Below are positions 8,862-54,815 of a stretch of 64,000 nucleotides of DNA, in pieces. The stretch is from Rhizophagus irregularis (taxonomy: Eukaryota > Glomeromycota > Glomeromycetes > Glomerales > Glomeraceae). The position numbers were made by a program, and so were the translations under genes. Location of the stretch: NCBI RefSeq assembly GCF_026210795.1, contig NC_089457.1:248001-312000 (forward strand), given 5' to 3'. A model generated the notes under the pieces. It saw nothing but the letters and a program-made list of their open reading frames with translations. It did no database searches and was not told where the DNA came from. How positions within the stretch are numbered: position 1 is the first letter of the stretch; the number at the start of each line of letters is the position of its first letter.

Positions 8862-10147
8862 AGGACCCCGAATAATACTAATATAACTCACAAATGATCA
8901 GCATGCATTTACTATTAACTCTACTCAACTTTTTTTTCATAGTAACGCTACGCAAATCCAAATCTTAGTTCAAAAAATTTTTGTTACTAATATAATTCAT
9001 TTCACATTTTTTCTATTAAAATATTAATAAAATCATGCAAAACTCACCATTTTATATTAAAATAGTGTGTTTCGCACTTTTTTCTATTAAAATATTAATA
9101 AAATGGTGCGAAAATCACCATTTATTTGTTAAAATGATGCGTTTTGCACTTTTTCTATTAAAATATTAATAAAATCATGCGAAACTCACCATTTATTTGT
9201 TAAAATGGTGCGTTTCGCACTTTTTCTATTAAAATATTAATAAAATCATGCGAAACTCACCATTTATTTGTTAAAATGGTGCGTTTCGCACTTTTTCTAT
9301 TAAAATATTAATAATATCATGCGAAACTCACCATTTATTTGTTAAAATAGTGCGTTTCGCACATTTATAATAAAATATTAATAAAATGGTGCGAAACGGC
9401 TCCCATTTATTTGTCGAAAATGGTGCGTTTAGCATTTTTTATATTAAAATATTAATAAAATGATGCGAAACTCTCCATTTATTTGTCAAAATGGTGCGTT
9501 TCGCACTTTTTTATATTAAAATATTAATAAAATGGTGCGAAACTCACAATTTTTTTGTTAAAATGGTGTGTTTCGCACTTTTCATTAAATTATTAATAAA
9601 ATGGTGCGTTCGCACTTTTTCTATTAAAATATTAATAAAATGGTACGTTTCCACTTTTTTATATTAAAATATTAATTAAATGTGTGAAACTTACGCCAAA
9701 TTATTTATTAAAATTGTGTGTTTCGCACTTTTTTCTATTAAAATGTTAATAAAATGGTGCGAAATTCACCATTTTTTGTTAAAGTAGTGCATTTCGCACT
9801 TTTTTTTTATTAAAAAATATTAAAATAATGCGAAATGCATTACTTTTTGTTACTATATACAATTAATTACCAAAATCCGTAATATTGCAAATTTAAAAAT
9901 AAATATATTACGGGACATCCTTATAATGGTTTTGTGGCTAACTTAATTTTTATTTCTACTATCGATATTATACGAATTGATCAATAATATAATGCAATAT
10001 ATTTATAAAGCTACACGCAAACGTGATATGTGAGTTATCCCAAAATTGACCGATCTACGCAAACTCAATTTATGGGTTTAAAAAGTAATTTTATATAAAC
10101 TCTACGCAAACCTGTTTGTGAGTTATATCAGTATTATTCGGGGTCCT
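8862..10147. mobile_element. 1.3-kb TIR element with an internal satellite
   Basis: Ends are inverted copies over more than 30 bp. The left end starts AGGACCCCGAATAATACTAA and the right end is its near-complement, finishing TTATTCGGGGTCCT. Flanks ATTATGAC (8854-8861) and ATCATGAC (10148-10155) look like an 8-bp duplication with one change, so hAT-type is the best guess. It interrupts the tandem repeat cleanly. No transposase is visible; most of the interior is a 71-bp satellite. A lone fragment resembling one end occurs at about 28305-28335. Confidence 0.8.
8985..9850. repeat. 71-bp satellite, about 12 units
   Basis: Regular 71-bp spacing is clear at 9201, 9272 and 9343. Each unit contains CTATTAAAATATTAATAAAA, then TGCGAAAC, a spacer, and GTTTCGCAC, so each unit carries an inverted pair able to form a hairpin. 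Later units are shortened and degenerate. It lies wholly inside the TIR element at 8862-10147. Confidence 0.9.
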
Positions 10148-10862: not shown

Positions 10863-10959
10863 TACTTAAAATACAATTGTTTCTGAATAATTTTTATTTT
10901 AAAAAAAAAATTCTAAAGGAATTAATTAAAGAATTTTTTGCTCTCTAGTCGCTACTGGT

Positions 10960-11450
10960 TGAAATAGTCCAAATTGGCTAGAAATCAGATGTCCAATTTT
11001 AGGCTGAATTTGATAATAAAGATGGCTGAATTATCAATCCAAAAAAAGTTTTGATTGGTAGGTCGATCAATACCGATCAGAATGTCCGAATTGTATCTGG
11101 ATTGCTTAGTATTTTTAATCTGAATTATTTAAAAAAATATATTCATAAATTTACCTAATTTATTCTGAATTATGATAAATTTTGATAAATTGCGATAAAT
11201 TTTAATCTGAATTACAGTAAATTTTAATCTGAATTGCAGTAAATTTTATTCTGAATTGTGGTAAATTTAATCTGAATTGTAGTTAATTTTATTTTGAATT
11301 GTGTCTGAATTGCAATTAATTTTATTCTGAATTGCATTAAAATTGCAGTAAATTTTATTCTGAATTGTATTGCAAATTACAATAAATTTTATTCTGAAAT
11401 TTAAAATATTACATATACATATAAAATAATTTCACCCAAAAATCAATATT
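10960..11450. repeat. CACTA subterminal repeats, left end
   Basis: Short units such as CTGAATTGCAGTAAATTTTA recur about every 22-25 bp, the same motif family as at 43300-43900. CACTA elements typically carry such subterminal arrays as binding sites for their accessory protein; here that role is inferred from position. Confidence 0.75.
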
Positions 11451-11459
11451 CCAATTGCC

Positions 11460-14400
11460 TGAAAAAAAGAAAAAAACTTGAAAGGTGAAGTAGCCGTTTA
11501 AAATCACCTTACCGAATTTCCATATGTCTAAAAGAGCCCAGAATAACGTTAAAAATGTTTAATTACGTAAATAATAAAATACTTTTTTATAAAAGTTTTG
11601 AATTTTTTATTTTAAAACTAACCTGAAAATCTGATATACGTTAAATTCCTTAATTTCCATTCGTTTCTACAAATTGGAGATGATTTTCCTATAAAAAAAA
11701 AGAAAAAATGTTAAAATAACTTTGTTTTTTAAGTTTCGAGTTTTAAAAATCGAAACATTACCTGTAGGATGGCAAATTGAAGCTAATTTTTCTACAAAAT
11801 AAATAATAAAAATAAACATTTTTTATTAAGTTTCGTCAAAAAGTTTTAAAAATCGAAACTTTACTTGCGGGATTCTAGTATTCAAATTGGAGCTGATTTC
11901 CCTGCAAAAAAAATAATAATTAAAATAAACTTTTTTTATTAAGTTTTGAAAATATGAAACTTTACCTATAGGATTGGCTAAATCGGAGCCAATTTCCTAT
12001 AAAAAAATATAAAAAATGTTAAAATTAACATTTTTTTATTAAGTTTTAAAAATACGAAACTTTACCTGTAGATTTAGCCAAATCAGAGCCCTGCACTTTG
12101 GTGTTTTGGACCTACAAAGTGTTCTGAATCTACAAAATTAAGAACAAATGTTAGTTAACGTTCGTTAAAATAAAATAAACAAAAAAATTTTTTTCAAAGT
12201 TTCACTTTCAAAATACTGCCCGAAAAGCCAAAAACCTAAAAAAAAAGAAAATTGAAACGTTAATTAATGTTTCATTCAAATAAAAAAACAAAAAAAAATA
12301 CGGAATTTTGAAGAGATACCTTCAAAATTCCATCCAGATATACAGAAACTGGAAATTCGAAACCTAAAAAAGAGAGAAAATTGAAATGTTAGTTAACGTT
12401 TTGTTCAAATAAAAAAAGAAAAAAAAATCAGAATTTTGAAGAGATACCTTCAAAATTCTATTTAGACATCTGAAAAACCTAAAAAAAAGAGAGAAAATCA
12501 AAATGTTAGTCAACGTTTCATTCAAATAAAAAAAGAAAAAAAAATTAGAATTTCAAAGAAATACCTTTGAAATTCCATTCAAACATCCGAAAAACCTAAA
12601 AATAAGAAATAATCAAAATGTTAGTCAACGTTTTGTTCAAATAAAAAAATAAAAAAAAAATTCTAAATAAGAACAAACATTAGTAACGTTTGTTAGATAA
12701 ATTAATGAAATATTTTGAAGTATTACCTTCAAAATGTCATGTTGAAATCATCCTGAAACCTAATTGAGAAGATTTTGGCGTTCATCACATATCAGAGCCA
12801 ATTTCCTACAAAAAAAATAAAAAAACATTTAAAATAAATGTTTTTTATTAAGTTTTGAAAAAAAAACTTCAAAACTTTACTTGTAGAATTGGTATTCCAA
12901 ATCAGAGCTGATTCCTACAAAAAAAATATAAAAAACGTCAAAATAACATTTTTTTTTAAGTTTCGTAAAGTTAATTCAAAACTTACATGGAAATCTGGTA
13001 TCCAAATCTCGAAACTGATTTCCTACAAAAAAAATAAAAAAACATTTAAAATAAGTGTTTTTTATTAAGTTTCGAAAAAAAACTTCAAAACTTTACTTGT
13101 AAAATTGGTATCCCAAATCAGAGCTGATTCCTACAAAAAAAATACAAAAAACGTCAAAATAATGTTTTTTTTAACAACTAGTACGCATGTAATACCCTAA
13201 TTTTTGTTATTATGATTAATATAATAAAAATTGTGACACAGCTTACTTATTGAATATATAGTATATATATATTAAAATCGGTTAAATTAATTTTAATTGG
13301 TTAAAATTGATTATTTTTAAATTGTAATTCCGGCCAAAATTTTCTTAATTCTGGCCAAATCCATAATTCCGGCCTAAATTTAATTAAATTTAGAAAAATA
13401 CATGTCAAATGTAACATTATATTTATATAATATAACACTTTAATTTAAAAAGCAAAATAAACTTATTGATCATTTCTACAGATTTATCAAAAAAAAATTC
13501 ATTACTCAAACTGAGTTTTCAAGTTGGATCTTCATTTTAAATTAATGTTTTTTTATATTACAAATAAAAGAAAATAAAGTTTCGAAAATCTATACCATTA
13601 CGTAAAATATCAATAGCTTCACGAATATCAAACGAAAATTAACAAAATTCAATACACAATTATTTTCGATCCCACTGAACAATTCACACTTAATACACAA
13701 AGGCGATTCTCTTATAACCAAAATAACTAAATTACGCTCTGAATGTATTAAATGAATAGATAATAAATGAACGTTAATATTTCCATAAGTACTGATTAAA
13801 AACTTATGAAAATTGAAATACATATGGAATCGACCTCATTGAATAATTATCACTTAATACACAAAGGTGATTATCTTATGACCAAAGTGTCTAAATTACG
13901 TTCTGAAGTAACTGATTGTGTGCAAAAAATTGAAATTAATTGTGTTATGAATAACATCAGTAGCTTCATAAATATTGGCTAACATTTCGTATAAATTGAA
14001 ATTCAAGTAGTTTCGACCTCGCTGAACAATTTTCACTTAATAAACAAAGGCGATTTGCTTATGAATAAAATGCCTAAATATGCTCTAAAATTACTAAACA
14101 GAAAAAAAACAAATTTAAAGTTAGCATTGTTATAAAAATACAAATAACTTAACAAACTATTAAATGAAATTTAATGAAAATTGAGTTGCAAGTAGTTTTG
14201 ATATCGCTGAACAATTTTTACTTAATATATAAAGGTGATATGTTTATGTCAAAATTGCTAAAACTACTACTTTAAAAAAATTTGCGTACTTAAGAAATAA
14301 TATAAAATTTTGATTTTTTAAAGTTTATGCAAAATCTGTTTGAATAACCAATATTGGAAGCTTAGAAAAACTTTCTTTTCTCGCAAAATTACATATATTT

Positions 14401-15310
14401 CTGTTGTTAAAACTACATTTTTCTTCTTACCTTTAAAAGGATCTCAAAAAAAATGTGTTTTTTAAAATAAACTTCATGTATATGTAAAAAAAAATTATTA
14501 GTAAAACGAAAAACTAATTTAAGAAACTGATAGAGCACATGATAATCTATTAAATTACTTTATTTGGTATAGTGTTGTATATTATAATTGATGATTAATT
14601 GTTAAATGATGTAATTCAATTATAGTTACACAAAATTTTATTATTATAAAATTGATCTCTACGTTACACTGCGCGATAACTGTTAAGTTTGTAAAGTTAA
14701 TTCAAAACTTACATGGAAATCCAGTATCCAAATCTCGAAACCAATTTCCTACAAAAAAAAATATATAAAAAAATGTTTGAAATAAACGTTTTTTATTAAG
14801 TTTCGAAAAAAAAACTTCAAGACTTTACTTGTAGGATTGGTATCCAAATCGGAGCTGATTCCTACAAAAAAAAATATAAAAAATAATAAAAAACGTTAAA
14901 TTTAAACGTTTTTTATTAATTTTTTTCAAAAAGTTTCAAAAATCGAAACTTTACCTGCAGGATTCCGGTATCCAAATTGGAGTTGATTTTCCTGCAAAAA
15001 AATATAAAAAAATAATAACGTTAAATTTAAACATTTTTTATTAATTTTTTTCAAAAAGTTTTGAAAATCAAAACTTTACCTGCAGAATTCTGGTATCCAA
15101 TTTGGAGCTGATTTCCCTGCAAAAAAAAGTAATAAAAATAATAAAAAAATGTTATATTTAAACATTTTTTTATTAAGCTTTGTAAAGTTTTGAAAAACTT
15201 ACATGAGAATTCAGTATTCCAAAGTTCAAAGAAATTAATTAAAAAAAAAATACAAAGTTTTATAACTTTACGAAACTTACAATAAACCCATTCCTTCAAA
15301 AACAATATCT
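11460..15310 (-). other. Minus-strand short-exon array M1
   Basis: Read on the minus strand, about 15 units alternate a 31-45 nt exon-like block with an intron-like block of roughly 65-90 nt. Introns begin GTAAAG, GTATCT or GTATTT and end in a T-tract plus TTTTTAG or TTTTGCAG; a GTTAACTAAC-like branch motif is present in several. Exon-like blocks form families: one includes AATCAGCTCC and GGATACCAGAATTC (15.1-14.8 kb and 13.1-11.6 kb), another ends GAATTTTGAAG (12.6-12.3 kb). Donors at 12.30, 12.43 and 12.55 kb sit in perfect 11-bp inverted repeats. Exon lengths are not consistently divisible by three and several frames contain stops, so a present-day protein is uncertain. The array is interrupted by a TTAA-flanked element at 13175-14682. 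Confidence 0.6.
13175..14682. mobile_element. 1.5-kb TTAA-flanked element (piggyBac-like), non-coding
   Basis: Inserted at TTAA with TTAA on both sides (13171-13174 and 14683-14686). The undisturbed sequence is seen in the paralogous unit near 12960. Ends CAACTAGTACGCATG and, inverted, CAGTTATCGCGCAGTG are similar. TTAA duplication is the hallmark of piggyBac elements. Inside are about four degenerate copies of an 80-180 bp unit (CACTTAATACACAAAGG, then CTAAATTACGCTCTGAA) at about 13660, 13840, 14020 and 14200; a related single copy occurs near 25125-25200. No transposase is visible. Confidence 0.7.
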
Positions 15311-16152
15311 TGTCCGTTTGGCTTCAATTTGTTCAGAAGAAAGTGTAAAAAAAAAGATTATCTAAATCGAATAAAAATCTGCAAACTGCAGATTATATTA
15401 ATAGTTTCAGAAGGAATCTTAAGAAAATATTTAGTAAAATGTTTCCTAAAGAAAAAAAATAAAATTTTAAAGAAAAAACTTTGAAATCATAATTTTAAAT
15501 TGTATAAATTAAAAACTTGAAATATGCTTATTTAAACTTTAATAGTCGATTGTAATAAAATAAACTGCTAATATCAGAAATTTGAAAATAGATTTTGGGA
15601 AATAATAAGTCAAAATTAAGCCAATCAAAACTTGACATATTTTCAAATTGCCTAGTGTTATTTTTTTATGAATTTTGAATCAATCGGCATACTAGTGAAA
15701 TTTTTTTTTTTTTATGTTTCAAGTATAGCTGGTCAGATTTTTTTAAAATTTTTGATAAGTATTTTATACCAATCAGCTATAAATCAAATATGATGATTTT
15801 TGCTGAATTTTTATGGAATTTTAATAATGTGTTGATTTTTCACAAATCAGATGTGCTGATTTGCAGTATTGGTTGATTTTTAGTCTGATTTTTGGCCAAT
15901 TTTCAATATGACCAATTTTTTGATTTTGACCGGTAAAATTTTTATTGAATTGTCAATTTTCCATAAATCAGAAGTGCATATTTGAATATTGGACAAATTT
16001 TAGATTGATTTGCCATTTTGTCTAATTTTTTTTGATTTCAATCAGCGTCAATCAACCGTCAATCAAATATGATGATTTTTTGCTGAATTTTTATTGAATT
16101 TTTATTTAATTGTCAATTTTCTATAAATTTGAAGTATATATTTGAATATTGG
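15311..16152. other. Transition region and CACTA subterminal repeats
   Basis: 15311-15600 is AT-rich without recognisable content. From about 15600 to 16152 the sequence is diverged copies of the roughly 170-bp subterminal repeat (CAAATATGATGATTTTTGCT, ATTTGAATATTGG) that also makes up 22640-23198 and 34230-34910. The run is cut at 16153 by a nested element and resumes at 22641. Confidence 0.6.
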
Positions 16153-17447
16153 CATCGGGAAATGTTTTAAGATGCAGAACTGCAGAGATCTGTAAAATTA
16201 GCAGATCTTCGCATTTTTTATGTGAATTTATGCAGAAGTCTGCAATTTTGCAGATCTCTATTTTTTAATTTTTACAAAATTTTGCAATAATCAGATTTCA
16301 GCTTTTTTTTATGTGAATTTATGCAAAAGTCTGTGATTTTGCAGATTTCAGCTTTTTTTTATGTCAGAATATCAATTTGATTTGCGATTTTATCACACAA
16401 TTAACTTTTAACACTTAAACTTTAACTTTTAAACTTTGATTAAAACTTGATTTATTATCTAAATAATTTTTTTTATAACACTTTTTAAATTTTACAAGAC
16501 TTTAAAGAAAAAATAATTTTTCTACACTTTTTACTAAAGAAAAAACTTTACAAAATAATTTTTTCTACCACTCTTCAAAGAAAAAATTTTATGACTTTAA
16601 ATAAATAATTCTTTCCATAATACTTTTTAAAAAAATAATCTGTTAAAGATTCCAAAGAAAAAAATTTTGTTAAAATTTTTATTATTAAGCTTCGAAGTTT
16701 GTCAGAGAAATTTTTTTATTTAAAAAAAAAATTTATTTACAAGGTTTGGGCAAATTCATCCAATATTTGGCACATAATCTGCAACATGCATATTGGACTA
16801 AAAAGACATTGAACTTCATTATCTCCTACTTTCATAAAAAACATTTTACTTTGTAAGCAGAAATACTCCATTTCAAAGGTATTTATTTCTTCAAATTTTT
16901 TTTATTAATATTATTTAACAAACGTTAAACATTCATTTTATTAGTCCAGAACACCAAAGGTATATTCCAGACTCTCCATTTTTGATGGTAACCTTTGAAA
17001 TTTGTATTTTTCTTTTTGTTTCAAGTTCAGGACTCCCATTTCGAAAGTTACCTTCAAGAAAAATGTTATTCTTATTAATTTTAACGTTCATTTATTAAGT
17101 TCTGAATGCTGAAGTATAGCTCTGGATAGTGCTCTACACGAGCCAAGCTGGCTCATGAGCTGGCTCAAGCTTTTCAAGCTGAGCCAAGCCAAGCCATGAT
17201 TAAATTGGCTTGGTGGCTCACGAGCCAGCTTGGAAGAGCTCAAGCCAGTTATTAGGCTCAGCTTAAAAAGCTTGAGCCTGTAACAGACTTGGCTCAAAAA
17301 GCTCGAGCTGGCTCATGAGCCAAACGAGCTATATATAAAAAATGTTGCGAAACGTTTTTATATAATAATGCATGCATAAACGAAACGTTTTCGCAACTTT
17401 TTTTCATTGTTTATTAAAGAACGTTGCAAAAACGTTTATTTAAGTTT

Positions 17448-18770
17448 TTACATGTAAAATTGAAAAAAAAACGCCGAAACTAATGATTCTGGCGTTTTTA
17501 CATGTAAAATTGAAAAAAAATGCTGGAACCAGTGTTGTACATGGGACATGTCCCGCCAAAATTTTAATGTCCCGGACATTGTCCCGTCTCTGTCCCGTCC
17601 ACGTCCCGTCCAAAAATTGTCCAAGTTTACAATTTGTCTTATCAAGACAACACCTAATAATGGGCTATAATTTATAATTACGATCACGTGATTTTAATGT
17701 CCCAATGTCCCAGACATTGCTAAAATCTTTGGACGTGTCCCAGACTGTCCCGTCCTGTTCCATCTATGGACATGTCCCGTCCCTATGACAACACTGGCCG
17801 GAACTAATGATTCTGGCATTTTTACATGTAAAATTGAAAAAAAATGCCAGAACTAATGATTCCGGCGTTTTTACATGTAAAATTGAAAAAAAATGCCAGA
17901 ACTAATGATTCCAGCGTTTTTACATGTAAAATTGAAAAAAAAATGCCAGAACTAATAATTCCGGCGTTTTTACGTAAAATTGAAAAAAATGCCAGAACTG
18001 AATCATTCTCGGCGTTTTTACACGTAAAATTAAAAAGAAACTGCCGGAACTAATAACATTCTGGCGTTTTTACATAAAATCAAAAAAAAATGCCAAAACT
18101 ATCAGTTTCAGCGTTTTTACATGTAAAATCAAAAAGAAAAATGCTGGAACTAATGATTCCGGCGTTTTTATATGTAAAATCGAAAAAAAATGCTGAAACT
18201 AATAGTTTTGGCGTTTTTACATGTAAAATCAAAAAGAAAAATACTGGAACTAATTATTCCGGCATTTTTACATGTAAAATCGAAAAAAAATGCTGAAACT
18301 ATCCGTTTCGGCATTTTTACATGTAAAATTAAAAGAAATATGCCGAAACTATCAGTTTTGGCATTTTTACATGTAAAACCAAAAAGAAATACGCTGGAAC
18401 CAATTATTCCGGTGCTTTTACATGTAAAATCGAAAAAAATGCTGAAACTATCAGTTTCGGCATTTTTACATGTAAAACCAAAAGGAAATACGCCAGAACC
18501 AATTATTCTGGTGCTTTTACATGTAAAATCAAAAAAAAAATGCCGAAACTATCAGTTTTGGCGTTTTTATATGTAAAATTAAAAGAAAAACACTGAAACT
18601 ATCAGTTTCAGCATTTTTACATGTAAAACCAAAAGGAAATACGTCGGAACTAATTATTCTGGCGCTTTTACATGTAAAATCGAAAAAAAATGCCAAAACT
18701 ATCAGTTTCGGCGTTTTTACATGTAAAATCAAAAGGAAAAATGCCGAAACAAATAGTTTTGGCGTTTTAT
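17448..18770. repeat. About 59-bp minisatellite, roughly 18 units
   Basis: Units run TTTTTACATGTAAAATTGAA, then poly-A, then TGCCAGAACTAATGATTCCG and GCG. Each unit contains the palindrome-like TTTTACATGTAAAA and an imperfect inverted pair around the unit join. Variation among units is mainly CCGGAAC, CCAGAAC and CTGGAAC, consistent with CpG decay. Open frames here are by-products of the repeat. Confidence 0.9.
17530..17796. mobile_element. 267-bp hAT-type MITE inside the minisatellite
   Basis: Starts CAGTGTTGTACATGGGACAT and ends CCCTATGACAACACTG, inverted copies of one another, with 8-bp flanks GCTGGAAC and GCCGGAAC. The interior is rich in GTCCCG and contains ATCACGTGAT. It is the youngest of four nested layers at this spot. 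Confidence 0.88.
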
Positions 18771-20249
18771 ATAAATATAAAAGTAAAAAACGTTTTGCAA
18801 CGTTTTTTTTAATAATTTAAAGTAAAAACGTTGCGAAAACGTTTTTATGATAAAGCTTGAGCCAGCTCGAGCTCAGCTTGGCTCAAGCCAGGATTTTCAT
18901 GGCTCAGCTTGGCTCAAACTGAGCTGAGCCAAGATTTTTTGTGGCTCGGCTCATTTCAGGCTTGCTTGGTGCAGATCTTCAAGCCGAGCCAAGCCAGACT
19001 GTAGCTTGGCTCGAGCCGGCTCATGTAGAGCACTAGCTCTGGACTTTATTTTAATAGTTGAAGTTGAAACTTCGGTAAATATTTTTATTTTTTAAGTTTT
19101 GAACGCTGAAGTACAGCTCTGGACTTCATTTTCAAAGGTAAAAACCTTCAAAATTTTTTTTTATATTTAATTTTAATAAACGTAACTAACGTTCATTTTT
19201 CATGTTTTTAGGTCCTGAGCACTGAAGAACAGCTCTGAATGTTTATTTTGAATGTAAAGTTTACCTTTAAAATATTTTTTTAATTTTATTTTAACGAATG
19301 TTAATTAACATTTGTTTTTGCGTTTTATAGGTCCTGGACATCAAAGAATGGCTCTGGACTCTTATTTCAGAGGTAAAGGCCTTTGAATAACTTTATTTAT
19401 TTAACGAACGTTGCAAACGTTCATTTCTATTATTTTTTAGGTCCTGGACGCCAAAGTACGACTTTGGACATTTATTTCAAAAGTAAAGTTCACCTTCAAA
19501 ATATTTTTTTAATTTTATTTCAACAAATGTTAATTAACGTTTATTTTTACGTTTTATAGGTCTTAGACGCTAAAGAATGGCTCTGAACTCTTATTTCAAA
19601 GGTAAAACCTTTACTTTCAAATTTTTTTTTATATTTTTGTTTAATAAACGTTGCTAATATTCGTTTTTCATGTTTTTAGGTTCTGGATGCCGAAGAATAG
19701 CTCTGGACTTTTATTTCGTAGGTAAAAATCTTCAAAATATTTTTTTTATATTTTAACTTTAACGAACGTTAGTTACGTTTATTTTTGTATTTTATAGGTC
19801 CTGACGCCAAAAAATGGTTCCAGACTCTTATTTTGAAGATAAATCTTTGAAATTTTTTTTTATATTTATATTTTAGCGAACGTTACAAAATGTTCATTAT
19901 TTTTTTTTTAGGTCCAGAATGCTGAAGGTATATTCCAGACCCATTTGAAAGTTCTATTTGAAGGTAAAACTTTCAAATTATTTCTTTTAATTAATTTATT
20001 AGTGAAACGTTTATAGCATTTTGTTTCTTTTTTTTCAGGTAAAGGAAGCTGAAACAAGTTCTGAACTTTCATATCAAAGGTAAAATAAACTTTCGAAAAA
20101 TTAATTTTTTTTTTTAATTAATTTATTGACGAAACGTTTTTAACATTTCATCTCTTTTTTTTAGGCAAGGGAATTTGAAACAAAGGTAAAACCTTCAAAA
20201 AAAATTAATTTTTTTAATATTTTTATTTAGCGAAATGTTAATTAACGTT

Positions 20250-20505
20250 CACTGGTAAAAAAATGGTCTATCCTACACATATCCTACACATATCTTACAT
20301 ATATCGGGTACTCAAAATGTACATATCATACATATATCGGGTACTTATATATATAGTATACCTATCAGGTACCTGATATATGTATGATATATATATTAGT
20401 ACCCGATATGTGTATGATATGTGTATTATTTGTGTATAATTTTCTATATTTTAAGTACCCAATATGTGTAAGATATGTGTAGGATAAATCATTTTTTTAT
20501 CAGTG
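20250..20505. mobile_element. 256-bp CACTG-ended MITE
   Basis: Ends CACTGGTAAAAAAATGGTCT and, inverted, CACTGATAAAAAAATGATTT, with 3-bp duplication GTT (20247-20249, 20506-20508), as for CACTA-type elements. The interior alternates ATATGTGTA and GGGTACT motifs. It interrupts an intron-like block of array P1. Confidence 0.85.
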
Positions 20506-22640
20506 GTTTCATCCTTTTTTTTAGGCAAGGAATCTAAAACCGAGTTTCAAACTCCCATATCGAAGGTAAGACCTTTCGAAAAAATTAATTTTTTTTAATA
20601 TTTTTATTTAGCAAAACATTAACAAATGTTTTGTCTTTTTTTTAGCCAAGAAAATCCAAAACTGAGTTCTGGACTCCTATATCAAAATTAAAACCCTTAG
20701 AAAATTTTATTTTTTTTAATATTTTTATTAACAAACATTAACTAATATTCGTGTTTTTTTTTTTAGGCAAGAGAATCTGAAAATGAGTTCTGCACTCCCA
20801 TATCGAAGGTAAAACCTTCGAAATTTTTTTTCTTTTTTATTTATTGATGAATGTAACTAACGTTTATACTATTTCCTTTTTTTTAGATAAAATAAGCTGA
20901 AAACTTAAACTCCTATATGAAGGTTTTCCCATACGAAGGTAAAACCTTTGTAAAAAAAATTTTTTTTTATTTAATTTATTAACAAATGTTAATTAACGTT
21001 CGTATTACTTTTTTTTTAAGCAAAGGAATCCGAAAATGAATTCTGGGCTCCTATATCGAAGGTAAAACCTTCAAAATTTTTTTCTTTTTTATTTAAACAA
21101 ACGTTAACTAACGTTCGTATTTTATTTTTTTTTAGGTAAAGGAAGCCGAAAACAAGTTTGGTCTCCAATATCGAAGGTGAAACCTTTGAAAAAAAATTTT
21201 TTTAATAATTTTACTTAATAAAATGTTTTCTAACGTTCATTTTTGTATTTTGTAGGAATATGGCTCTCCAGACGCTCCTGAACAGAATTTTGAAGGTAAC
21301 CTTTAAAATTCTGTTTTTTTTTGTTTTATTTAAATGAAACATTAGCTAACATTTCATTTTTCTTTTTTTTATAGGTTTTGGTACTTCAAAGTTCCCGAAA
21401 TGGATAAATGGTAAGTTTCGCAACTCTCGTTGCGAAACTTTAAAATTTTTTTTTTTTAAAGAACATTTCTAACATTCTTTATCTATTTTTTTGTAGGTTT
21501 CAGTACTCAATATTCCCGAAACTTTAACATGATAAGTTTCACAAATGTTGCAATATCGCAAAACTTGAATTTGAATTTTTTGGTTTTTTTCGTTAAAAAC
21601 ATTATACTAACGTTTTTTAATATTTTTTTGCAGGTTCAGTATTCCAAAGGTTCTGAAAGGCTAAAGGGTAAGCTTCGCAATGTTTCATTGCGAAACTTAA
21701 TTTGATAACCAATTAATTCATTTTTGTTGCTTTTTTTTATTTTTATAAAAGAACGTTTTTAACGTTCTTTCTTCTTTATATAGGAACGCTGGGCTTTTTT
21801 AAACGAACTAGACTTGGAGATTTTTTCAGGATTTCAAAGGTATTTATCTTCGAAATTAATTTTTTTTAATGTTTAACAAAATGTTTACTAACGTTTCATT
21901 TGTCTTTTCTTTTCCTTTTTGCAGGTTTACGGCTTTTGAACAGAATTTCAAAGGTAAAATTCCTTTGAAATTCTTTCATGTTTTTTAATTTGCGAAATAT
22001 TTACTAACGTTTCAGTTGTTTTTTTCTGTAGGGTTTTTTTTCTGGCTCCTAGACAATAGAATTTGAAGGTATATCTTCAAAATTCTTTATAATTTTTTTT
22101 TATTCTTTTTTAACAAACGTTCTACTAACATTCATTTTTCTTTATTTTTCAGATCTTGAGATTTCATGTCAAACATTTCGAAAATAATAACTTTGAAATG
22201 ATTTTCTTATTTCTAACAAACATCTCCGATTTTCTATTTTATTTGTTGTTTATTAGAATCGAATCAACTGGAATAATGTCCAAACCATTAATAACATGTA
22301 AATTATAGTGGAACTTTAGCTATTAGTGCATTAATAAAATAGTGTAGTAAAGTGATAAATTTGTAATGCATTTAATTAATAAATTGATGTTGGATAATGC
22401 TAAAATAAATAACAATCAAAATTTGTACAATTTATTATTCTGATAATTTTCACAGATTTTTATTTTGTAAAATATGCGCAGAATTTAATAATAAAAATCT
22501 GCGCAGAACTTTATTATTTATAAATTTGCGCAGTTTTTTATTGGATTTTTCCTCTGATGTTTTGCGCCAGGGTATAAGATCTGTGCAGAAATAATTTCTG
22601 AAAATCTGCGCAGATCTGGTCCCTAAAAAATTTTCTGATG

Positions 22641-23198
22641 GGGTAAATTTTAGGTTGATTTGCCATTTTGTCTGATTTTTTTTTGATTTCAACCAGCATC
22701 AATCAGCCATCAATCAAATATAATGATTTTTTGCCAAATTTCTATTGAATTTCTATTGATTTTTATTGAATTGTCAATTTTCCATAAATTGGAAGTATAT
22801 ATTTGAATATTAAGCAAATTTTAGGTTGATTTGCCATTTTGTCTGATTTTTTTTTTGATTTCAACCAGCGTCAATCAGTCGTCAATAAAATATGATGATT
22901 TTTTGCTGAATTTTTATTAAATTTTTATTGAATTTTTATTGAATTGTTAATTTTCCATAAATTGGAAGTGCATATTTGAATATTGGGCAAATTTTAGGTT
23001 GATTTGCCATTTGTCTGATTTTTTTTGATTTCAACTAGCATCAATCAGCCATCAATCATATATGATGATTTTTTGCTGGATTTTTATTAAATTGTCCAAT
23101 TGGCATCAATCAGATGTGCTGATTTGTAATGTCAGTCAATTTTGGTCTGATTTTTAGCTGATTTTCCATATGTCTGATTTTTTTGATTTTGACTAGTA
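22641..23198. repeat. CACTA subterminal repeats, right end
   Basis: Three to four tandem copies of a roughly 170-bp unit containing TTTTAGGTTGATTTGCCATT, TTGATTTCAACCAGC and ATTTGAATATT, ending at the decayed terminus GACTAGTA. They match 34230-34910 in inverted orientation. Confidence 0.75.
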
Positions 23199-23657
23199 TT
23201 TGATAACATAATTTTTAAATAGTCAGATATAATTATGTGTAGCAAAGTATTAAATTATTAATAGTCAAATATATATTTGCGTAGTAGGATAGATTTTTTT
23301 AATATATATATATAATATAATATATATTTACATTTTTCACATTAAAAAAATTTAATAAAATATGTAAACAAAGTTATAAATATGTTTGTGTAAAAAAAAT
23401 TTACTATTTTTAATACAAAGAATAAGTTAATTGTATACGTAATACAGAAAACATTTTTAGACGTAATTGTATAATGTGTTTTGATAAAATAACTATGCGT
23501 CTGCATAACATTAAAATTATAAATCATATACGCATCCGTATAACAGTAAAAAAATATATATTGAAAATAAGAGCAATGGGTTAATAAGTGTTTTTCTGTT
23601 TTTTTATAATTTTACACTATAATTTTTGTAATAATCAATAAAAGTTATTTTATTTTT
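23199..23657. other. AT-rich stretch, nothing recognised
   Basis: Simple AT-rich sequence with TATATA runs near 23310. No coding frame or repeat could be supported. Confidence 0.4.
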
Positions 23658-23939
23658 GGATCATTTTAATGCTCACCAGAGGTGAAATTCATCATATCAC
23701 GTGATATTTATTATTATATTAAAATTTAGTAAAATTCGCATCAAATTTTTTTTGTTTGAATAAACATGTAAAAAAAAGTTTTTTCTATTGACCATTTAAG
23801 CATAAATTTTTAAAGTTTTATTGACAAAAAGTTTCTTTTTAAATTAATATAACTTCAATTAAACTATTACACTCATCCACTAACCATTTAATCCAGATTT
23901 TTCATTAATTTAAAATCTATAGTAATGCATAATATATAA

Positions 23940-24550
23940 TCCTTTATAATAATGAAAAATGAAATGAAAGTGAAATAGGTTGATGAAAACAGAAATGGGA
24001 TGATGTAAAACAAAATGAAACAATACAAAGTGAATTGAGATGATGAAAAATAAAGTGGAATGTTGCAAAACGAAATGGAGTGATGAAAACTAATATGAAA
24101 CAATATGAAATGATATGGATTAATGAAAATGATATGAAGTAATATGGAGTGATGAAAAACAATATGAAGCAATATAGAGTGATGAAAAACGATATATAGC
24201 AATATGGAATGATGAAAAATGATATGAAACGATATGGAGTGATGAAAAATGATATGGAGCGATATGGAATGATAAAAAATGATATGGAGCAATATGGAGT
24301 GATGAAAAGCGATATGGAGCAATATGGAGTGATGAAAAGCGATATAAAGTGATATGGAGTGATGAAAAGCAATATAAAGCAATATGGAATGATGAAACCG
24401 ATATTGAGCGATATAGAGGGATGAAAATGATATGGAGCAATATGGAATAATATGGAATAATATAAAGTGATGAAAGCGATATGGAGTGATGAAAAACAAT
24501 ATGAAGCAATATGGAGTGATGAAAAATGATATAGGAGTGAAAGGGACAAT
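23940..24550. repeat. GATATGGAGTGATGAAAA minisatellite
   Basis: Degenerate repeats built from AATATGGAGTGATGAAAAAC-type words, about 30 bp period with variants. Overlapping minus-strand open frames rich in Ile, Ser, His and Phe are produced by the repeat itself; I do not call them genes. Confidence 0.85.
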
Positions 24551-24637
24551 AATAAATGACAAGGATAATTAAAAATAAAGTGGAAGCAAAAGGAATGGTA
24601 GAAAAATAAAAATACTAGCAATAAAAGTGAGTCTTAC

Positions 24638-24795
24638 CTTAACTTCTTGAAGTTATTTGAAATTGTTATTTTCTGAAAAATAAGTTAACAAGTTAGCATA
24701 AGAAAAAAAGAACATTAAACTAGCGAAGTAATAAGAAAATAAAAAAATCTTACCTTAAAAAGTTCCAGTAAAAGCTGGTCATTTTGAAAATAATA
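24638..24795 (-). other. Two minus-strand short exons
   Basis: Block 24795-24754 is exactly 42 nt, preceded by TTTCTTGTAG and followed by donor GTAAGATTTT. Block 24672-24638 is 35 nt, preceded by a branch-like TATGCTAAC and TTATTTTTCAG and followed by GTAAGACTC. The 42-nt size equals the modal block in array P1, though the sequence differs. Confidence 0.5.
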
Positions 24796-25099
24796 CTACA
24801 AGAAAGCAAAAAACAAAATAAGCATTACGCGTTTGTGTAATATGAAATCATCTAGTGAATTTTACTGAGGTAAATTTAAAATTTTAATAATTTTAATGCA
24901 TTGCAGATCAAGGTGAAATTTATCCTGGTAAAATTCACTGGAGGTGAATGTAAAATTAATCCTTCATTTTTACTTAGAAAATTTTTTAAAAATATTTTTT
25001 TTGACAAATTTTACAGTAAATTATAAAAATAAAAATTCCGTGTATTGGTGGCATTACAAAAAACATGAATAAATCTATAAATATCTATTCAATCATGAT

Positions 25100-25340
25100 A
25101 AAATATATATATAAGTATATTCGAACCTGCTGAACAACTTTACTTAAGAAGGTTTTAGATGTTTCCTTTGACTGAAGTGCCTAAATTACGCTCTGAAGAC
25201 ACAGAACGGATATACAAAATATTAATACATTTATAAGTTGTAATATTACAAAAAAATAATAATAGCTTTATCCATACATTATTTCAAAAATTTTTGTTTT
25301 TTTAGTTTTTTTATATACACTAGTATTCACCTGTTAACTA
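25100..25340. repeat. Fragment related to the TTAA-flanked element
   Basis: 25125-25200 (TTTACTTAAGAAGG, then CTAAATTACGCTCTGAAG) resembles the internal unit of the element at 13175-14682. At 25320-25350 CACCTGTTAACTATGTTAAC resembles 7035-7060. Probably a remnant of the same family. Confidence 0.45.
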
Positions 25341-25694
25341 TGTTAACAGTTAGGAATAAATCTGCTTACAGTCTGTATAACAATTCTGTATATTTATAGT
25401 AATTATACTTATTAGCGAAATTGAATTTTAGAATTATGACAGATGTAATTAAAATGCTCTAATTCGCCGCAATTATATGTTTTATTAGTAAACATTTGTA
25501 CTGATGTAATTGTTTTTAGCTATGCCATAATATTTTGACATTGACTTTTTAATTCTACTGAGAAGTATAATAGTAATACACACTTTTCAATTTTATTAAA
25601 AATTTAAAAAATAAATTATTTTTTATTTATTCTTTGAGTTTTGTTAAAGATCACCAGTGGTAACTTCAAACTAATTTTGTTATGCTCTTTTATT

Positions 25695-26020
25695 TTTTGC
25701 CTAAGAACATAAAGATCAATAAAAACGTGAAAATCAAGGATAAGATTAAAGGATTAAAGGGTAATTACATCCCAAAGCTAAAGAACACAAAGATCAATAA
25801 AAAATGTGAAAATCAAGGATAAGATCAATAGGAAATCACATCCCAAAGATAAGGAACACAAAAATCAATAAAAAACACAAAAATCAAGGATAAGATCAAA
25901 GGGAAATCACATCTCAAAGATAAAGAAAACAAAGATCAATAAAAAACGTAAAAATCAAGGATAAGATCAAAGGTAATCACATCCCAAAGATAAAATAAAA
26001 ATGCAAAAATCAAAGATCAG
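25695..26020. repeat. 72-bp tandem repeat, about 4.5 units
   Basis: Units AAAGATCAATAAAAAACG, then AAAATCAAGGATAAGATCAA and CACATCCCAAAGATAA recur at about 25710, 25792, 25863 and 25935. It adjoins the minus-strand short-exon array M2 and could be its downstream part. Confidence 0.8.
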
Positions 26021-26535
26021 ATCAAAAATGTTAGTAGTATTCTCAAATCAAAAAAAAACAAAAAAGAAACAAAAAAACAAATGCAAATACTCACTTCAAA
26101 GCCAAAATCTGGAGTCCAAGTCCGTCCGTCCCTAAAGAAAAAGAAAGAAAAGGAACCTTAGTAGTGTTCCAAATAAAAAAAGAAAAAAAGAAACAATAAA
26201 CAACACAAATACTCACTCCAAAACTGAAATCTTGAGTCTAGTAATATCTGAGTTCATTCCTAAAGAAAAAGAAAGAAAAGGAACGTTAGTAGCATTCTTA
26301 AATCAAAAAAAAAATCAAAAAGAAACAAAAAAACAAATGTGAATACTCACTTCAAAGCCAAAATCTGGAGTCCAAGTCCGTCTCTAAAGAAAAAGAAACA
26401 AAAACAACTCCAAAACTGAAATCTAAAGAAAAAGAAAGGAAAAGAAACGTTAATAGCGTTCCTAAATCAAAAAAAAAGAAATAAAAAATAGTGCGAATAC
26501 TTACTTTAAAGCTGAAAGCTGAAGTCTATATTCTT
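26020..26535 (-). other. Minus-strand short-exon array M2
   Basis: On the minus strand, blocks 26383-26351 (33 nt), 26259-26217 (43 nt) and 26131-26095 (37 nt) are each followed by donor GTGAGTATT and preceded by TTTCTTTAG. The introns contain branch motifs CTACTAAC (near 26025, 26155, 26290), the strongest fungal branch consensus in the window. The first and third blocks share GACTTGGACTCCAGATTTTG. Reading frame is not maintained across blocks in an obvious way. Confidence 0.6.
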
Positions 26536-26573
26536 TTATTCCTCATTTTTTTAAAATTTTCTTAAATTATACC

Positions 26574-26817
26574 TAAGGTTGCTTGTCTAAACCTCTTCAA
26601 AATCCTACGATTAGTTTCGTAAAAATTTTACTATAGATTTATTATAATTTTGGCAGAGTTTCGGCAGTTTTAGCATTTATAATAAGTTTTGGCAGTTTTA
26701 CATTTCTCCAAAGTTTTGCCAGTTTTTTAATATAACTTTAATATAGTTTCGGCAGAATTTCGCTTTTCGGCAAAACGCTATCTTGCCTAAACCCCTAGGT
26801 TTCAGCAAGCAAATTTA
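26574..26817. mobile_element. 244-bp hAT-type MITE, copy 3
   Basis: Same length and order as the copies at 583 and 977. The left TIR is intact; the right TIR has decayed to CAAGCAAATTTA. Flanks ATTATACC and ATTATTTC are a decayed 8-bp duplication. It lies between the diverging arrays M2 and P2. Confidence 0.85.
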
Positions 26818-26849
26818 ATTATTTCCCTCTTTTTTTAATTTTTTTTCTT

Positions 26850-27960
26850 TTTGTCAGTTAGAACCCCCTTTTTTGTAGAACGTTTCAGGATTCTTTTTCT
26901 TTTTTTGGTAGATTAGTACTTTCTTGCAGGATGACGCTTTGGGATTTTCTTTCTTGTACTAGAATGACACCTTCAGGATTCTTTTTCTTTTTTTGTGCAG
27001 GCCTTTAGTTTAATAGATACAGGCAGATCTATCAAATCTGAATGGATATTTTCATCTGTTTTTGATTGAATGTGTTAACTTTCAGCAGAAAAATGTTTGG
27101 AAGTTCTCTTTTAAAGACGAATAATGTCGATTTAAGCGTCTCAATTTTTGGGTTAACATTTCTTTTAGTTTCAAGCTTAACAGCTATCAGCTTCGTACAA
27201 TTAGAGAAACTGTTTAGTGTTCTTTTTTTGCTCTGAGATTCTTTATTTTTTTTATAGGTCGGTATTCAGCATTCTTCTATAGAGTTCTTTTTTTTCTTGT
27301 AAGATGACGCTTTGGGATTCACTTTTTTATAGGATGACGCCTTCAGGATTCTTTTTCTTTTTTTGTAGGTCAGTATTCAGTATTCTTTATCAGGTTCTTT
27401 TCTTTTTTGTATGTAGATCAGTTCGGTATTCTCTTTTTGTAGATCGGTATTTGATATTCTTCTATCGGGTTCGTATTTTCTCTTTCTTTCAATTTCCTTT
27501 TCGTTAGAAGTTTCTAACCTCTCTCTTTTTATTTTCTTTAGCTTGGTCCTCTTTTCAGCATCAGATTCTGGGTAGGTAAAGCAGTTGCTAACCTTTTCTT
27601 TTTTTTTCTTTAGGTCAGTTCTCTTTTTAATGCGAGATTCCAGATAAGTCTTTCTTTGTTTTCGCTTGTTTCACTTTGTTTTGTTTTATTTCATTTTTTG
27701 TTCGTTCTAACCTTTCCCTCTCCATTTAGGTTTCAGTTCTTTTAGCTTTTTGACCTTAAGATGCATTTTTTGTTTAGTATTATTTGTATTATTTGTTTTG
27801 TTTCACTTTTCGCTCATTCTTACCTTTACTCTCTCCATTTTAAGTCCAGCTCTTTCAGCTTTAAGGTGCGACTTATTTTCATTTTTTGTTTATTTTGTTT
27901 GTTTTGTTTCATTTTTCGTTCATTTCAACCTCTACTCTCTTTCCATTTAGGTACGCGCAG
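26850..27960 (+). other. Plus-strand short-exon-like array P2
   Basis: Repeated blocks such as GGTCGGTATTCAGCATTCTT and GGATGACGCCTTCAGGATTC follow TTTTTGTAG or TTTTATAG. Later blocks follow CTCCATTTAG with upstream TTCTAACCTTTCC-type branch motifs (about 27590, 27710, 27920). Units are more degenerate than in P1. Open frames here are Phe-rich by composition and not convincing proteins. Confidence 0.45.
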
Positions 27961-28340
27961 TGAGTTCTTTTTTATTTGCTTCTCTTTTTTCGTTGTTGAA
28001 GAAAGGAAAAGGAAATAAAAAAGTAAAAAGATGCGTAACTGCCTGTAACATATTTTTATTGTTATTGCATCATATGTGTTATGCACTGCGGTTGCATAAT
28101 TTGTAAATAGTTATTTATATGGGTAGTCGTAGTATTTTTTAAATATTAGATATTTTATAAAAAAAATTATATATAAATATATATATATCATAAAATAAAT
28201 TGCTTAGCAGTGTAAAAAATTTATGAGTTAGATAAAAGTTTGCTTAGCAGATATGAAAAATATTTGCTTATTGACCTTAGTAAATTTTGAATTTTTTATC
28301 TGACCTATATATACTGTATATTATTTGGGGTCCTAGTATG
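27960..28340. other. AT-rich gap with a TIR-end fragment
   Basis: AT-rich, with TTATTTGGGGTCCTAGTATG near 28312 resembling the right terminus of the element ending at 10147. The matching left end was not found. Confidence 0.4.
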
Positions 28341-29876
28341 ATGTTAGTGAAAGGATAATTTGTGATATTCTAAAGACAAAAGACTGTTGGCTTGCTGTAG
28401 ATCTTTATTCATATCAAGCTAATTTGAAATAAGAAAGAAAATTCACTTTTATTGTTATTAAAAAAACTTTAGCTCTTTGGGTGGAAAATGCACTTTAGGC
28501 TGGTCTTATTATCAGTGATGATATTCTTTTATGAAGAAAATTCAAGGGATCAGATGGATGGATCAACAAATTTAAAAAATAGCATAATCTTAAACAATAT
28601 AATATGCATGAAGAATTGGCAAGTGCACTACTTGCAAAACTTGACATAATGTATGAAAATCTTTACCAAATTCTAAAAAATTATGATTCTAATGATATTT
28701 TTAATTGTAATGAAACAGGTTTTTTTTGGAAAATACAATCTAATCATACCATATCTAATGGTCTTGTGGCTGAAATGAAATAATCTAAGAATTATATAAT
28801 GGTTTTATTTACTTGTAATGCAACTGGAACTGAAAAGTTGCGCTTTTTATTCATACACAAATATGAAAATCCCTGGGCTCTAAAAAATATTAGCAAAACT
28901 ACTATTCCAGTAAATTATTATTGGAATTCAAAAAGTTGGAAGCAAGTATTGATCTGAAATGCATATATTAAAAGGCTTGATGCTCAAATGAGAGCACAGA
29001 ACTGAAATATCATTTTTCTTGTTGATAATGCATCAACTCATTTTCTCAATAAAAATACAAAATTAACTAATATTAAAATTGAATTTCTTCTTCCAAATAC
29101 TATTTAACACCTTCAGCCATATGATCAAGAGATCATTAACAGTTTCAAAGTAGTTGAATTCATACTTTAACTTCAAATCTATACCTTATATTTTAGTAAT
29201 TTCAAATCCTTTTATTAACTATAAAAAATTTTATTTTATTTTAGGCATAATACTGAAAATTATTATTGTGAAATCGTGTTAAAGCCTTTGATAATTATAA
29301 TGAATTTGGCATTAACTCTGTTGAAATTAATATTAAAAAGTGTATCAAATATATCACATGCATATAGGATAATGTTATTCAATCTACTATTAAAAATTGC
29401 TGGTTAAAAGCAGATATTTTACCTAAAAATAATGAAAGTGAATTGATATGGATTTCTGTGCTGAAATACAAGTTCTTTTAACACATACAATGAGCTGAAA
29501 GAAGTTCAAAATTTAATTGATAAACTTAATCTTGAAAATCTTTTAACTGCTTATGAATTTATTCAATGTGATGAATTTGAACTTACAGCAGAAATGATAT
29601 CTAATGAAGAAATTTTAAAAGTAGTTCTTCCCAATAATCATGAACAAGAGGTAGAAGAACTAAATTCTGATCCTTTACCATTCATTACTCATAGTGAGAT
29701 CATTGAACATTATGATAAGGTGATTTTATATTTAAAGCAACAAGAGGATATGATAAATTTGATATGAAAAAAGAAGAAATAAAATGCATTAAAAAACTTA
29801 GAAAGGAAGCATTAAAACAATGTTTTATTTATGCAAGACAAACGAATCTTAATGATTTTATTAACATCTCTTAATT
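28341..29876 (+). pseudogene. Tigger/pogo-like DDE transposase pseudogene
   Basis: One reading order shows the whole family layout with many stops. N-terminal CENP-B/Tc5-type helix-turn-helix region: LALWVENAL, GLIISDDIL, GSDGWINKFKK. Catalytic region: DIFNCNETGFFWKI (first Asp replaced by Asn in the NETG context), NATGTEKLRFLFI, IIFLVDNASTHF (second Asp) and LLPNTI then LQPYDQEIINSF (third Asp). A probable intron lies near 29150-29245 (ends ATTTTAG). The tail holds CWLKADILPKN and an acidic segment to about 29876. Known role of the family: cut-and-paste transposition into TA. This copy is dead, but a relative could mobilise the TA-flanked elements in this window. Confidence 0.85.
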
Positions 29877-34219: not shown

Positions 34220-34229
34220 CACTGGTCGA

Positions 34230-34910: not shown

Positions 34911-35086
34911 CAAAATTAACTTTTGAAAAACATGATTTGTCATTAAAATTCAGAAATTCGGAAAAATCAACACCAAATTTATAGTCAATTACTCAATTTA
35001 TTATAAATTTATGTCTAAAACTTATAAGTTTATAATTGGTATTTTCTACTAATTGGATTTACGGCTAAATACTCTCTTGCATTTTG

Positions 35087-40690: not shown

Positions 40691-40708
40691 TTAATTGATG
40701 ATTTTTAA

Positions 40709-40722
40709 ATTTATAAATAGGA
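40709..40722 (+). promoter_or_regulatory. TATA-like box of the CACTA accessory gene
   Basis: ATTTATAAATAGG lies about 65 bp before the ATG at 40781, immediately after the minisatellite ends. It is the only TATA-like match in a sensible place here. Function is inferred from position. Confidence 0.45.
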
Positions 40723-40780
40723 CGATATGACGATATTGAACCCGCTTCGATTTTTTAAACGAATATTGAGTGAATATAAA

Positions 40781-54806: not shown

Positions 54807-54815
54807 CCTACCGTT

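What the first reader, a model, noticed from the sequence alone, without database searches (positions are those of the whole stretch)
11460..27960. Five arrays of 33-45 nt exon-like blocks with full splice signals, on both strands
Across 17 kb, more than 45 short blocks (many 41-42 nt) are separated by introns of about 65-90 nt. Each intron has a GT donor, usually a CTAAC or TACTAAC branch-like motif about 20-25 nt before the acceptor, a T-tract and an AG. Arrays: M1 (11.5-15.3 kb, minus), P1 (16.9-22.2 kb, plus), a pair at 24.6-24.8 kb (minus), M2 (26.0-26.5 kb, minus), P2 (26.9-28.0 kb, plus). Block and intron sequences differ among arrays (GTAAAA, GTATCT, GTGAGT donors) while the architecture is kept. 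Micro-exon genes are known from schistosomes, and aphid bicycle genes have many small exons; I know of none described in fungi or carried by DNA transposons. Stops and 41-nt blocks mean coding function is unproven.
Basis: partly seen in the sequence, partly recalled or inferred. Interest (0 to 1): 0.92.

Follow-up and report, generated by a model that had tools for sequence, protein, structure and literature searches.

The report
Transposons packed with micro-exon arrays
In a root-symbiont fungus, several families of jumping DNA carry long tandem rows of tiny exon-like blocks of about 30-50 letters, each followed by a complete-looking intron of mostly 65-90 letters; whether the cell really splices them still has to be shown with RNA.

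Summary
In the window, chains of three or more consecutive GT...branch...AG introns with 20-60 nt exons occur only at P1 and M1 (six chains, 26 introns). Thirty shuffles gave none, and ten other tandem arrays of the window gave at most a single intron. Better copies elsewhere have 10 + 12 consecutive introns. The genome is Rhizophagus irregularis. The arrays are the interior of transposons: M1 in a non-autonomous CACTA-type element with a tnp2-encoding relative in the same window (34220-44085); P1 in a second TIR element inserted into the M1 element; M2 and P2 together in a repeat with two divergent arrays. Published annotations already hold "uncharacterized proteins" that are chains of these blocks; four of them map exactly, with 8-19 introns. 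The models use all three frames, most other P1 exons are not multiples of three and no codon bias was found, so a conserved protein is unlikely. P1 and M1 units are hairpin-rich; in P1 donor and branch point sit at or beside compensating hairpin loops. Hairpins and splice signals also occur apart, so neither simply explains the other. Splicing itself is inferred: no RNA was available and no exon-joined genomic copy was seen.

The parts
10954..23197 (-). Degenerate non-autonomous CACTA-type copy that holds array M1; its subterminal repeats (22638-23197 and about 15775-16152) are split by the P1 element
   Evidence: blastn of the L051 element against the window: element 3102-3656 on 11454-10954, array parts on 15197-11627, element 2-566 on 23197-22638; both ends decayed, no target duplication recognisable
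11528..15197 (-). Array M1: exon-like blocks of about 30-49 nt, introns of 64-93 nt (one 112); interrupted by unrelated DNA at about 13.2-14.68 kb
   Evidence: chains of 5, 5 and 4 introns; a chain of two at 14862-15079
16153..22640 (+). P1 element with TIR-like ends CATCGGGAAA.../...TTTCTGATG, flanked by GG on both sides
   Evidence: ends shared with L054 and L056; P1-type matches at 39 places including this one by hand count (40 of 183 candidates scored)
19096..19903 (+). Array P1, run of 42-nt blocks
   Evidence: nhmmer unit hits; chain of 5 introns with four 42-nt exons at 19138-19679
19912..22152 (+). Array P1, second part with unlike blocks of 29-56 nt
   Evidence: alignment of 10 other copies: 13 introns, all GT..AG in the consensus; chains of 4 and 3 here
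17127..19037 (.). Younger repeat inserted in P1, holding a 49-nt hairpin array without splice chains
   Evidence: many genome matches start at about 17127; longest splice chain 0; hairpin z -4.4; right end read by eye
20257..20505 (.). Palindromic repeat inserted in P1 (limits approximate)
   Evidence: read from sequence; tandem-repeat rows at 20269-20437
24616..24805 (-). Two exon-like blocks with GTAAGA donors
   Evidence: read from sequence; matches of 78-96% at 36 other places
26030..26540 (-). Array M2, GTGAGT donors, TACTAAC branch motif
   Evidence: read from sequence; ten larger matches of 79-91% elsewhere
26880..27950 (+). Array P2, divergent from M2; introns without hairpins in the copy tested
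   Evidence: M2 and P2 matches lie side by side on opposite strands at 11 other places; folding z +0.5 for 6 introns of L064
34220..44085 (.). CACTA element with the same ends as the M1-type element and a CAT target duplication; candidate source of transposase
   Evidence: TIR positions, flanks; left 694-nt alignment 92.5% and right 517-nt alignment 83% identical to the M1-type element of L051
35916..38126 (-). tnp2 transposase reading frame (stop to stop) of that CACTA element
   Evidence: Pfam PF02992 Transposase_21, E=4e-11, 42.9 bits against a cut-off of 28.6

Best explanation
These are DNA transposons of Rhizophagus irregularis, without a transposase in the copies read, whose interior is a tandem array of exon-intron units of about 110-130 nt: a micro-exon plus a complete-looking major-type (U2) intron. 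Likely working: the element is transcribed along the array, the host spliceosome removes the short introns one after another, and a short RNA of joined 30-55 nt blocks remains. What is maintained is spliceability, not a conserved protein. In the P1 family the 5' splice site lies at or near the apex of a hairpin between exon end and intron start, and the branch point lies beside the loop of a second hairpin; I take this to steer or space recognition of neighbouring splice sites. Shown: the architecture, the mobile carriers, many copies, intact signals across consensus units, compensating hairpins in P1, published gene models built from these blocks. Inferred: transcription, splicing, the role of the hairpins, and any benefit to the element (for example removing itself piecemeal from host transcripts).
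For: Chains of introns beyond shuffles and ten control arrays; 10+12 in L056, 9+12 in L054. In 14 of 14 P1 consensus units: G at -1, GT and AG; a TNAY motif with its A 21-26 nt from the intron end in 13 of 14 (one at 34), exactly CTAAC in 10 of 14; no AG in the last 25 nt in 13 of 14. In 114 of 304 unit hits (the near-full ones) the donor GTAAA has 0 changes in 570 cells, while six other non-CpG G columns inside the exon (6, 7, 16, 21, 27, 42) change in 3-10%. Own hairpin arms fit better than arms swapped between the 14 units: donor 22.9 against 19.3 (0 of 20,000 permutations as good), branch 20.7 against 18.1 (p=0.00015). P2 introns of one copy have no hairpins and the 49-nt control array has hairpins without splice chains. 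P1 introns of 75-87 nt resemble two of three introns of an actin-family gene of the same genome (78, 83 and 126 nt). Four published protein models map on the genome over their whole length.
Against: No RNA evidence. My mapping of the models demanded GT or GC..AG introns, so it does not test the dinucleotides; only 35 of 48 introns are 70-90 nt long, the rest mostly skip units or use other sites; models also keep intron pieces and change frame, as ab initio prediction would. No exon-joined copy among listed matches for P1 or M1. Eleven other A or T columns of the unit also show no change, so part of the donor's invariance is low A/T mutability. Consensus introns are still 82% alike (shuffled 62%), exons 68% (shuffled 57%). 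In the young M1 element three units carry GC and one AT in place of the GT donor (by eye). Decay between copies spares splice sites only slightly. The donor G is paired in the predicted fold of 12 of 14 P1 units, which could hinder U1, and in unit J the donor is not in the hairpin.
Confidence: 0.55

Rival explanations
1. Satellite-like arrays inside transposons. One exon-intron piece was captured long ago and amplified in tandem; the signals are inherited from it and the arrays are silent or unspliced today.
For: Units are tandem duplicates and introns are still 82% alike; CpG positions differ in 11-41% of P1 units, as expected of methylated silent repeats; splice dinucleotides decay almost like the rest between copies; GC donors were amplified in M1; no exon-joined copies seen.
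Against: P1 consensus units differ in exon sequence and length (29-56 nt) yet 14 of 14 keep GT and AG and 13 of 14 a branch motif at 21-26 nt; arrays of different sequence share the design; hairpin arms compensate.
Confidence: 0.3
2. True protein-coding micro-exon genes carried by transposons, making repeat proteins (for example of 14-residue repeats).
For: 102 of 114 near-full P1 units have exactly 42-nt exons; annotated models of 100-365 aa exist in several R. irregularis annotation sets; one frame is open through ten L056 exons.
Against: Other P1 exons are 52,41,41,42,42,52,42,41,40,36,56,29,38 nt, 4 of 13 multiples of three, and stops lie in all frames of the spliced consensus; no codon-position bias; models use all three frames.
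Confidence: 0.1
3. Hairpin-rich DNA arrays in which splice-like motifs arise as a by-product of palindromes and T-rich sequence.
For: P1 and M1 units fold far better than shuffles (mean z -5.4 and -4.9), as does a 49-nt array without splice chains (-4.4).
Against: P2 introns have no hairpins in the copy tested but give chains of three at two places; the 49-nt hairpin array has no chain; donor-side GTAAA is invariant while its pairing partners vary.
Confidence: 0.05

Closest known systems
En/Spm (CACTA) DNA transposons, tnp2 group
   Same: The M1-type carrier has CACTGG termini, 3-bp target duplications (TTG, ATC, TGA in three copies; CAT in the window relative) and ends and subterminal repeats shared with a tnp2-encoding element
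   Different: The 3.66 kb element is filled by subterminal repeats and a micro-exon array; I see no room for a transposase, though I ran no family search on it
Micro-exon genes (MEGs) of schistosomes
   Same: Rows of very short exons
   Different: Abstract start of PMC10526429 in a search listing: exons 3-81 bp, introns up to 5 kb, secreted proteins. Here introns are mostly 65-90 nt, exons are tandem copies, no conserved frame was found and the carrier is mobile
Bicycle genes of aphids
   Different: Recalled: protein-coding genes, not transposon arrays; not compared by sequence here
SP7-like effectors of the same fungus
   Same: Same organism, internal repeats, a conserved intron as family mark (passages of PMC11333574)
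   Different: The shared intron precedes the first repeat; the passages seen describe no micro-exon array; sequences not compared
Transposons spliced like introns (maize dSpm, Ds) and introner elements
   Same: Recalled: mobile DNA that carries splice sites
   Different: Recalled: one intron per element; here 20 or more consecutive intron-like units per element

Membership tests
CACTA (En/Spm) transposon, for the M1-type carrier | Terminal inverted repeats starting CACT[A/G] | tested here: met
   CACTGGTCGAAAT...ATTTCGACCAGTG in L049, L051 and window 34220-44085; L050 differs in one base of the left motif. The decayed window copy has TACTAG/TACTGG
CACTA (En/Spm) transposon, for the M1-type carrier | 3-bp target-site duplication | tested here: met
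   TTG, ATC, TGA in L049, L050, L051 and CAT in the window element; not recognisable in the decayed window copy 10954-23197
CACTA (En/Spm) transposon, for the M1-type carrier | tnp2-type transposase in an element with the same ends | tested here: met
   PF02992 E=4e-11 in 35916-38126
CACTA transposon, for the P1 carrier | CACT[A/G] termini and 3-bp duplication | tested here: not met
   Ends are CATCGGG; flanks suggest 2-bp duplications GG and TT, a third copy has TA/AA; superfamily left open
Micro-exon genes (MEG) | Short exons in a row | tested here: met
   exon-like blocks of 20-60 nt in chains and in published models; splicing itself not shown
Micro-exon genes (MEG) | Symmetric exons (multiples of three; recalled) and one conserved reading frame | tested here: not met
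   4 of 13 exons of the second half of P1; all three frames used; no codon bias
Micro-exon genes (MEG) | Secreted products | not tested
   no signal-peptide prediction run
Major (U2-type) spliceosomal introns | GT..AG ends, branch motif near the 3' end, no intervening AG | tested here: met
   14 of 14 P1 consensus units for GT and AG; branch A at 21-26 nt in 13 of 14; no AG in the last 25 nt in 13 of 14
Major (U2-type) spliceosomal introns | Removed from RNA | not testable with these tools
   no RNA reads in the toolset
Minor (U12-type) introns, reported as numerous in this fungus (PMC10639083 section 34) | RTATCC donor (recalled consensus) | tested here: not met
   12 of 14 P1 consensus introns start GTRA and two GTAT followed by T or A; none is GTATCC. 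Other arrays not tested for this

The most novel reading that the evidence does not exclude
A class of DNA transposons whose main cargo is an array of spliceosomal introns: twenty or more consecutive short introns per element, 5' splice site and branch point presented by compensating hairpins in one family, spliced into a non-coding or frame-free string of micro-exons. This would be mobile DNA selected for being spliceable, found in several unlike element families of one fungus.
Probability: 0.33. Interest if true: 0.92.

Novelty: new variant of a known kind. Interest (0 to 1): 0.75.

Why it matters
If spliced, these elements are a natural system of exons near the lower size limit in long tandem rows, with structured splice sites that vary in sequence but keep pairing. 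That makes two questions testable: how exons of about 40 nt with 80-nt introns are defined, and whether transposons use splicing to soften their effect on host transcripts. If not spliced, it still matters: R. irregularis gene models under at least four kinds of locus tag (OCT59, GLOIN_2v, RIR_jg, Rhiir) turn transposon repeats into multi-exon "uncharacterized proteins", which would inflate lineage-specific gene counts.

Tried and rejected
Exon-joined (retro-processed) genomic copies as direct proof of splicing: searched with joined P1 exons (378 matches, about 150 listed) and joined M1-type exons (158 matches, about 150 listed). Listed matches are single exons with short overhangs. The two longer ones for P1 (164 and 172 nt at 72%) were read and contain the intron. 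The lists were cut off, so this is no proof of absence. A conserved protein: tested by frame, stops and codon position and rejected as the main explanation. In one search frame 0 had fewer stops than column shuffles (15 of 105 units against 22.3); I put this down to CpG loss on one side excluding loss on the other, which I did not test. Hairpins as the cause of the splice look: made unlikely. U12 introns: considered, rejected for P1 on donor sequence. SP7 effectors: considered, no such architecture in the passages seen. Host intron benchmark: one actin-family gene only (Arp2-like by eye), three introns folded. The pattern found no M2 introns, so M2 folding is untested. The third protein search (for M2/P2) was not used.
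Full report
WHAT IS THERE. The window is position 248001-312000 of contig 29 of a 146.7 Mb, 32-contig genome. The organism is Rhizophagus irregularis: annotated R. irregularis proteins match fetched loci residue for residue, and contig 22 has the same length, 3,735,046, as the contig that bears OCT59_014606. A scan with fixed splice rules finds chains of three or more introns only in arrays P1 and M1 (six chains, 26 introns). Thirty approximate dinucleotide shuffles gave 40 chains of two and none longer, and ten other tandem arrays of the window gave chains of 0 or 1. Copies elsewhere are cleaner: L056 has chains of 10 and 12 introns, L054 of 9 and 12, L018 of 4, 7 and 4, and the M1-type loci L049 and L051 of 5 each. 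L049 has a further chain of 7 introns with mostly 34-nt exons outside the shared element. M2 and P2 fail the rule in the window; elsewhere P2 gives chains of three at two places and M2 at one.

THE CARRIERS. M1-type arrays fill a 3.66 kb element with ends CACTGGTCGAAAT / ATTTCGACCAGTG and 3-bp target duplications in three of three copies read. L049 and L051 are 99.0% identical over 3,665 bp, so it moved recently. The window holds a relative at 34220-44085 with the same ends, a CAT duplication and a tnp2 transposase (PF02992, E=4e-11); its left and right ends align to the M1-type element at 92.5% (694 nt) and 83% (517 nt). M1-type DNA gave 323 matches and P1-type DNA 117. Only 40 of 175 and 40 of 183 candidates were scored, so these are lower bounds; the P1 matches fall in 39 places by hand count. 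The P1 carrier has other ends (CATCGGGAAATTTTTT) and may make 2-bp duplications (GG, TT; a third copy has TA/AA); I leave its superfamily open. In the window it is inserted in the subterminal repeats of the decayed M1 carrier, which explains two opposite arrays side by side. M2 and P2 lie next to each other on opposite strands, divergent, at 11 further places, so I take them as one element; its ends were not determined. The pair at 24.6 kb matches 36 other places at 78-96%.

THE UNIT. In the P1 run the exon is 42 nt in 102 of 114 near-full units (the others 40, 41, 44, 52, 53), the intron 65-83 nt. These 114 are those of 304 unit hits in the window and 15 loci that reach both unit ends. The second half of the element, aligned over 10 copies, has 13 unlike exons (52,41,41,42,42,52,42,41,40,36,56,29,38 nt; the first counted with one base that the alignment leaves out) and introns of 75-87 nt. 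Thirteen loci were tried: L020 could not be placed, L052 and L053 were left out because of inserts, as was the window copy; L027 and L028 were not tried. Across these 13 and the 42-nt unit, G at -1, GT and AG are kept in 14 of 14. A TNAY motif has its A 21-26 nt before the intron end in 13 of 14 (10 of 14 are exactly CTAAC, one of them at 34), and no AG lies in the last 25 nt in 13 of 14. TNAY alone is loose: most introns hold several.

SELECTION. In the 114 units the donor bases GTAAA show no change in 570 cells, while six other non-CpG G columns inside the exon change in 3-10% and CpG columns in 11-41%; but eleven other A or T columns also show no change. Units are related by duplication, so this is not a probability, and since hits had to reach the unit ends, acceptor conservation there is biased. 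Between copies of the second half the signal is weak: donor G 3, donor T 0, acceptor A 1 and acceptor G 6 changes in 124 cells each, against about 18.5 in all expected from non-CpG exon rates (G 63/1063, T 36/1370, A 8/1711). Old insertions decay nearly freely. The stricter conservation is between the units of the consensus element, whose exons are 68% and introns 82% alike (shuffled 57% and 62%).

HAIRPINS. In 13 of 14 P1 consensus units the exon end is predicted to pair with the intron start, with the donor at or near the apex; unit J is the exception. The donor G itself is paired in 12 of 14. The branch motif sits beside the loop of a second palindrome; for unit A the script took another motif. 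Arm sequences differ between units and compensate: own arms score 22.9 against 19.3 swapped for the donor (0 of 20,000 permutations as good) and 20.7 against 18.1 for the branch (p=0.00015). Mean folding z-scores: P1 units -5.4 (8, from L056), M1 units -4.9 (10, from L051), P2 introns +0.5 (6, from L064), three actin-family introns -0.7, the 49-nt control array -4.4 (5), the 89-nt control array -0.6 (5). Hairpins and splice signals therefore occur together and apart.

CODING. Gene finders accept these exons. P0001 (OCT59_011240) maps with 232 of 232 residues and 19 introns on L019; P0002, P0003 and P0004 map over their whole length on L026, L016 and L018 with 12, 8 and 9 introns. The mapping allowed only GT or GC..AG introns and took the path with fewest; 35 of 48 introns are 70-90 nt long. 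The protein searches returned 19 proteins for P1 and 17 for M1 at E up to 10, of which 13 and 12 have E of 0.001 or less; all rows are named as R. irregularis. The models use three frames, skip units and keep pieces of introns. With no codon-position bias and stops in all frames of the spliced consensus, I take them as annotation of transposon arrays, not as evidence of function. I saw only passages of PMC10234402: its annotation used BRAKER2 with Illumina reads, refined with Nanopore reads; the tag OCT59 does not occur in the text searched, so I cannot say that these models come from it.

LITERATURE. Searches for microexon with Rhizophagus irregularis (1 paper), for short exons or introns with R. 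irregularis (15 of 266 listed), for microexon with transposable element and fungi (12 of 13 listed), for micro-exon genes with transposon (7 of 7) and for tandem exon-intron arrays with CACTA transposon (10 of 31 listed) showed no title or abstract start that describes such elements (listings only, open-licence papers only). [quoted passage not shown] PMC10639083, section 34 (read whole), predicts 205 minor introns among 75,377 annotated introns of this fungus.

VERDICT. A real and unusual architecture on mobile DNA. Splicing is more likely than not but not shown; a conserved protein is unlikely.

Noticed in passing
L049:5796-6499: Another chain of seven introns with mostly 34-nt exons lies beside an M1-type element, probably a further family.
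   Followed up: no
window 17797-18768: 49-nt tandem array of strong hairpins (GCCGGAA...TTCCGGC, TTTTACATGTAAAA) without splice signals, inside a repeat with at least 20 genome matches.
   Followed up: partly
window 38871-40699: 89-nt tandem array inside the tnp2 CACTA element, with a short palindromic block (TTGATTTTTCAATCGAGAAATCAA) but no conserved GT donor.
   Followed up: partly
window 48296-55697: Long open frames that read by eye like a non-LTR retrotransposon (endonuclease-, reverse-transcriptase- and RNase H-like stretches).
   Followed up: no
window 28300-29900: Decayed stretch resembling a Tc5/pogo-type transposase, read by eye only.
   Followed up: no
L054 (reverse strand) about 2220-2310 and L056 about 1800-1880: Upstream of the P1 array an ATG-started frame of 25 codons ends at a GAAG|GTACTC donor, a possible first exon.
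   Followed up: no
annotated proteins P0010, P0011, P0015, P0017, P0018: Models that join a further repeat (MEPIKDIGIRRF...) with P1-like blocks, which suggests mixed elements.
   Followed up: no
window 9000-9835: 71-nt tandem array with inverted halves around GTGCGAAA/TTTCGCAC, no splice chain.
   Followed up: partly
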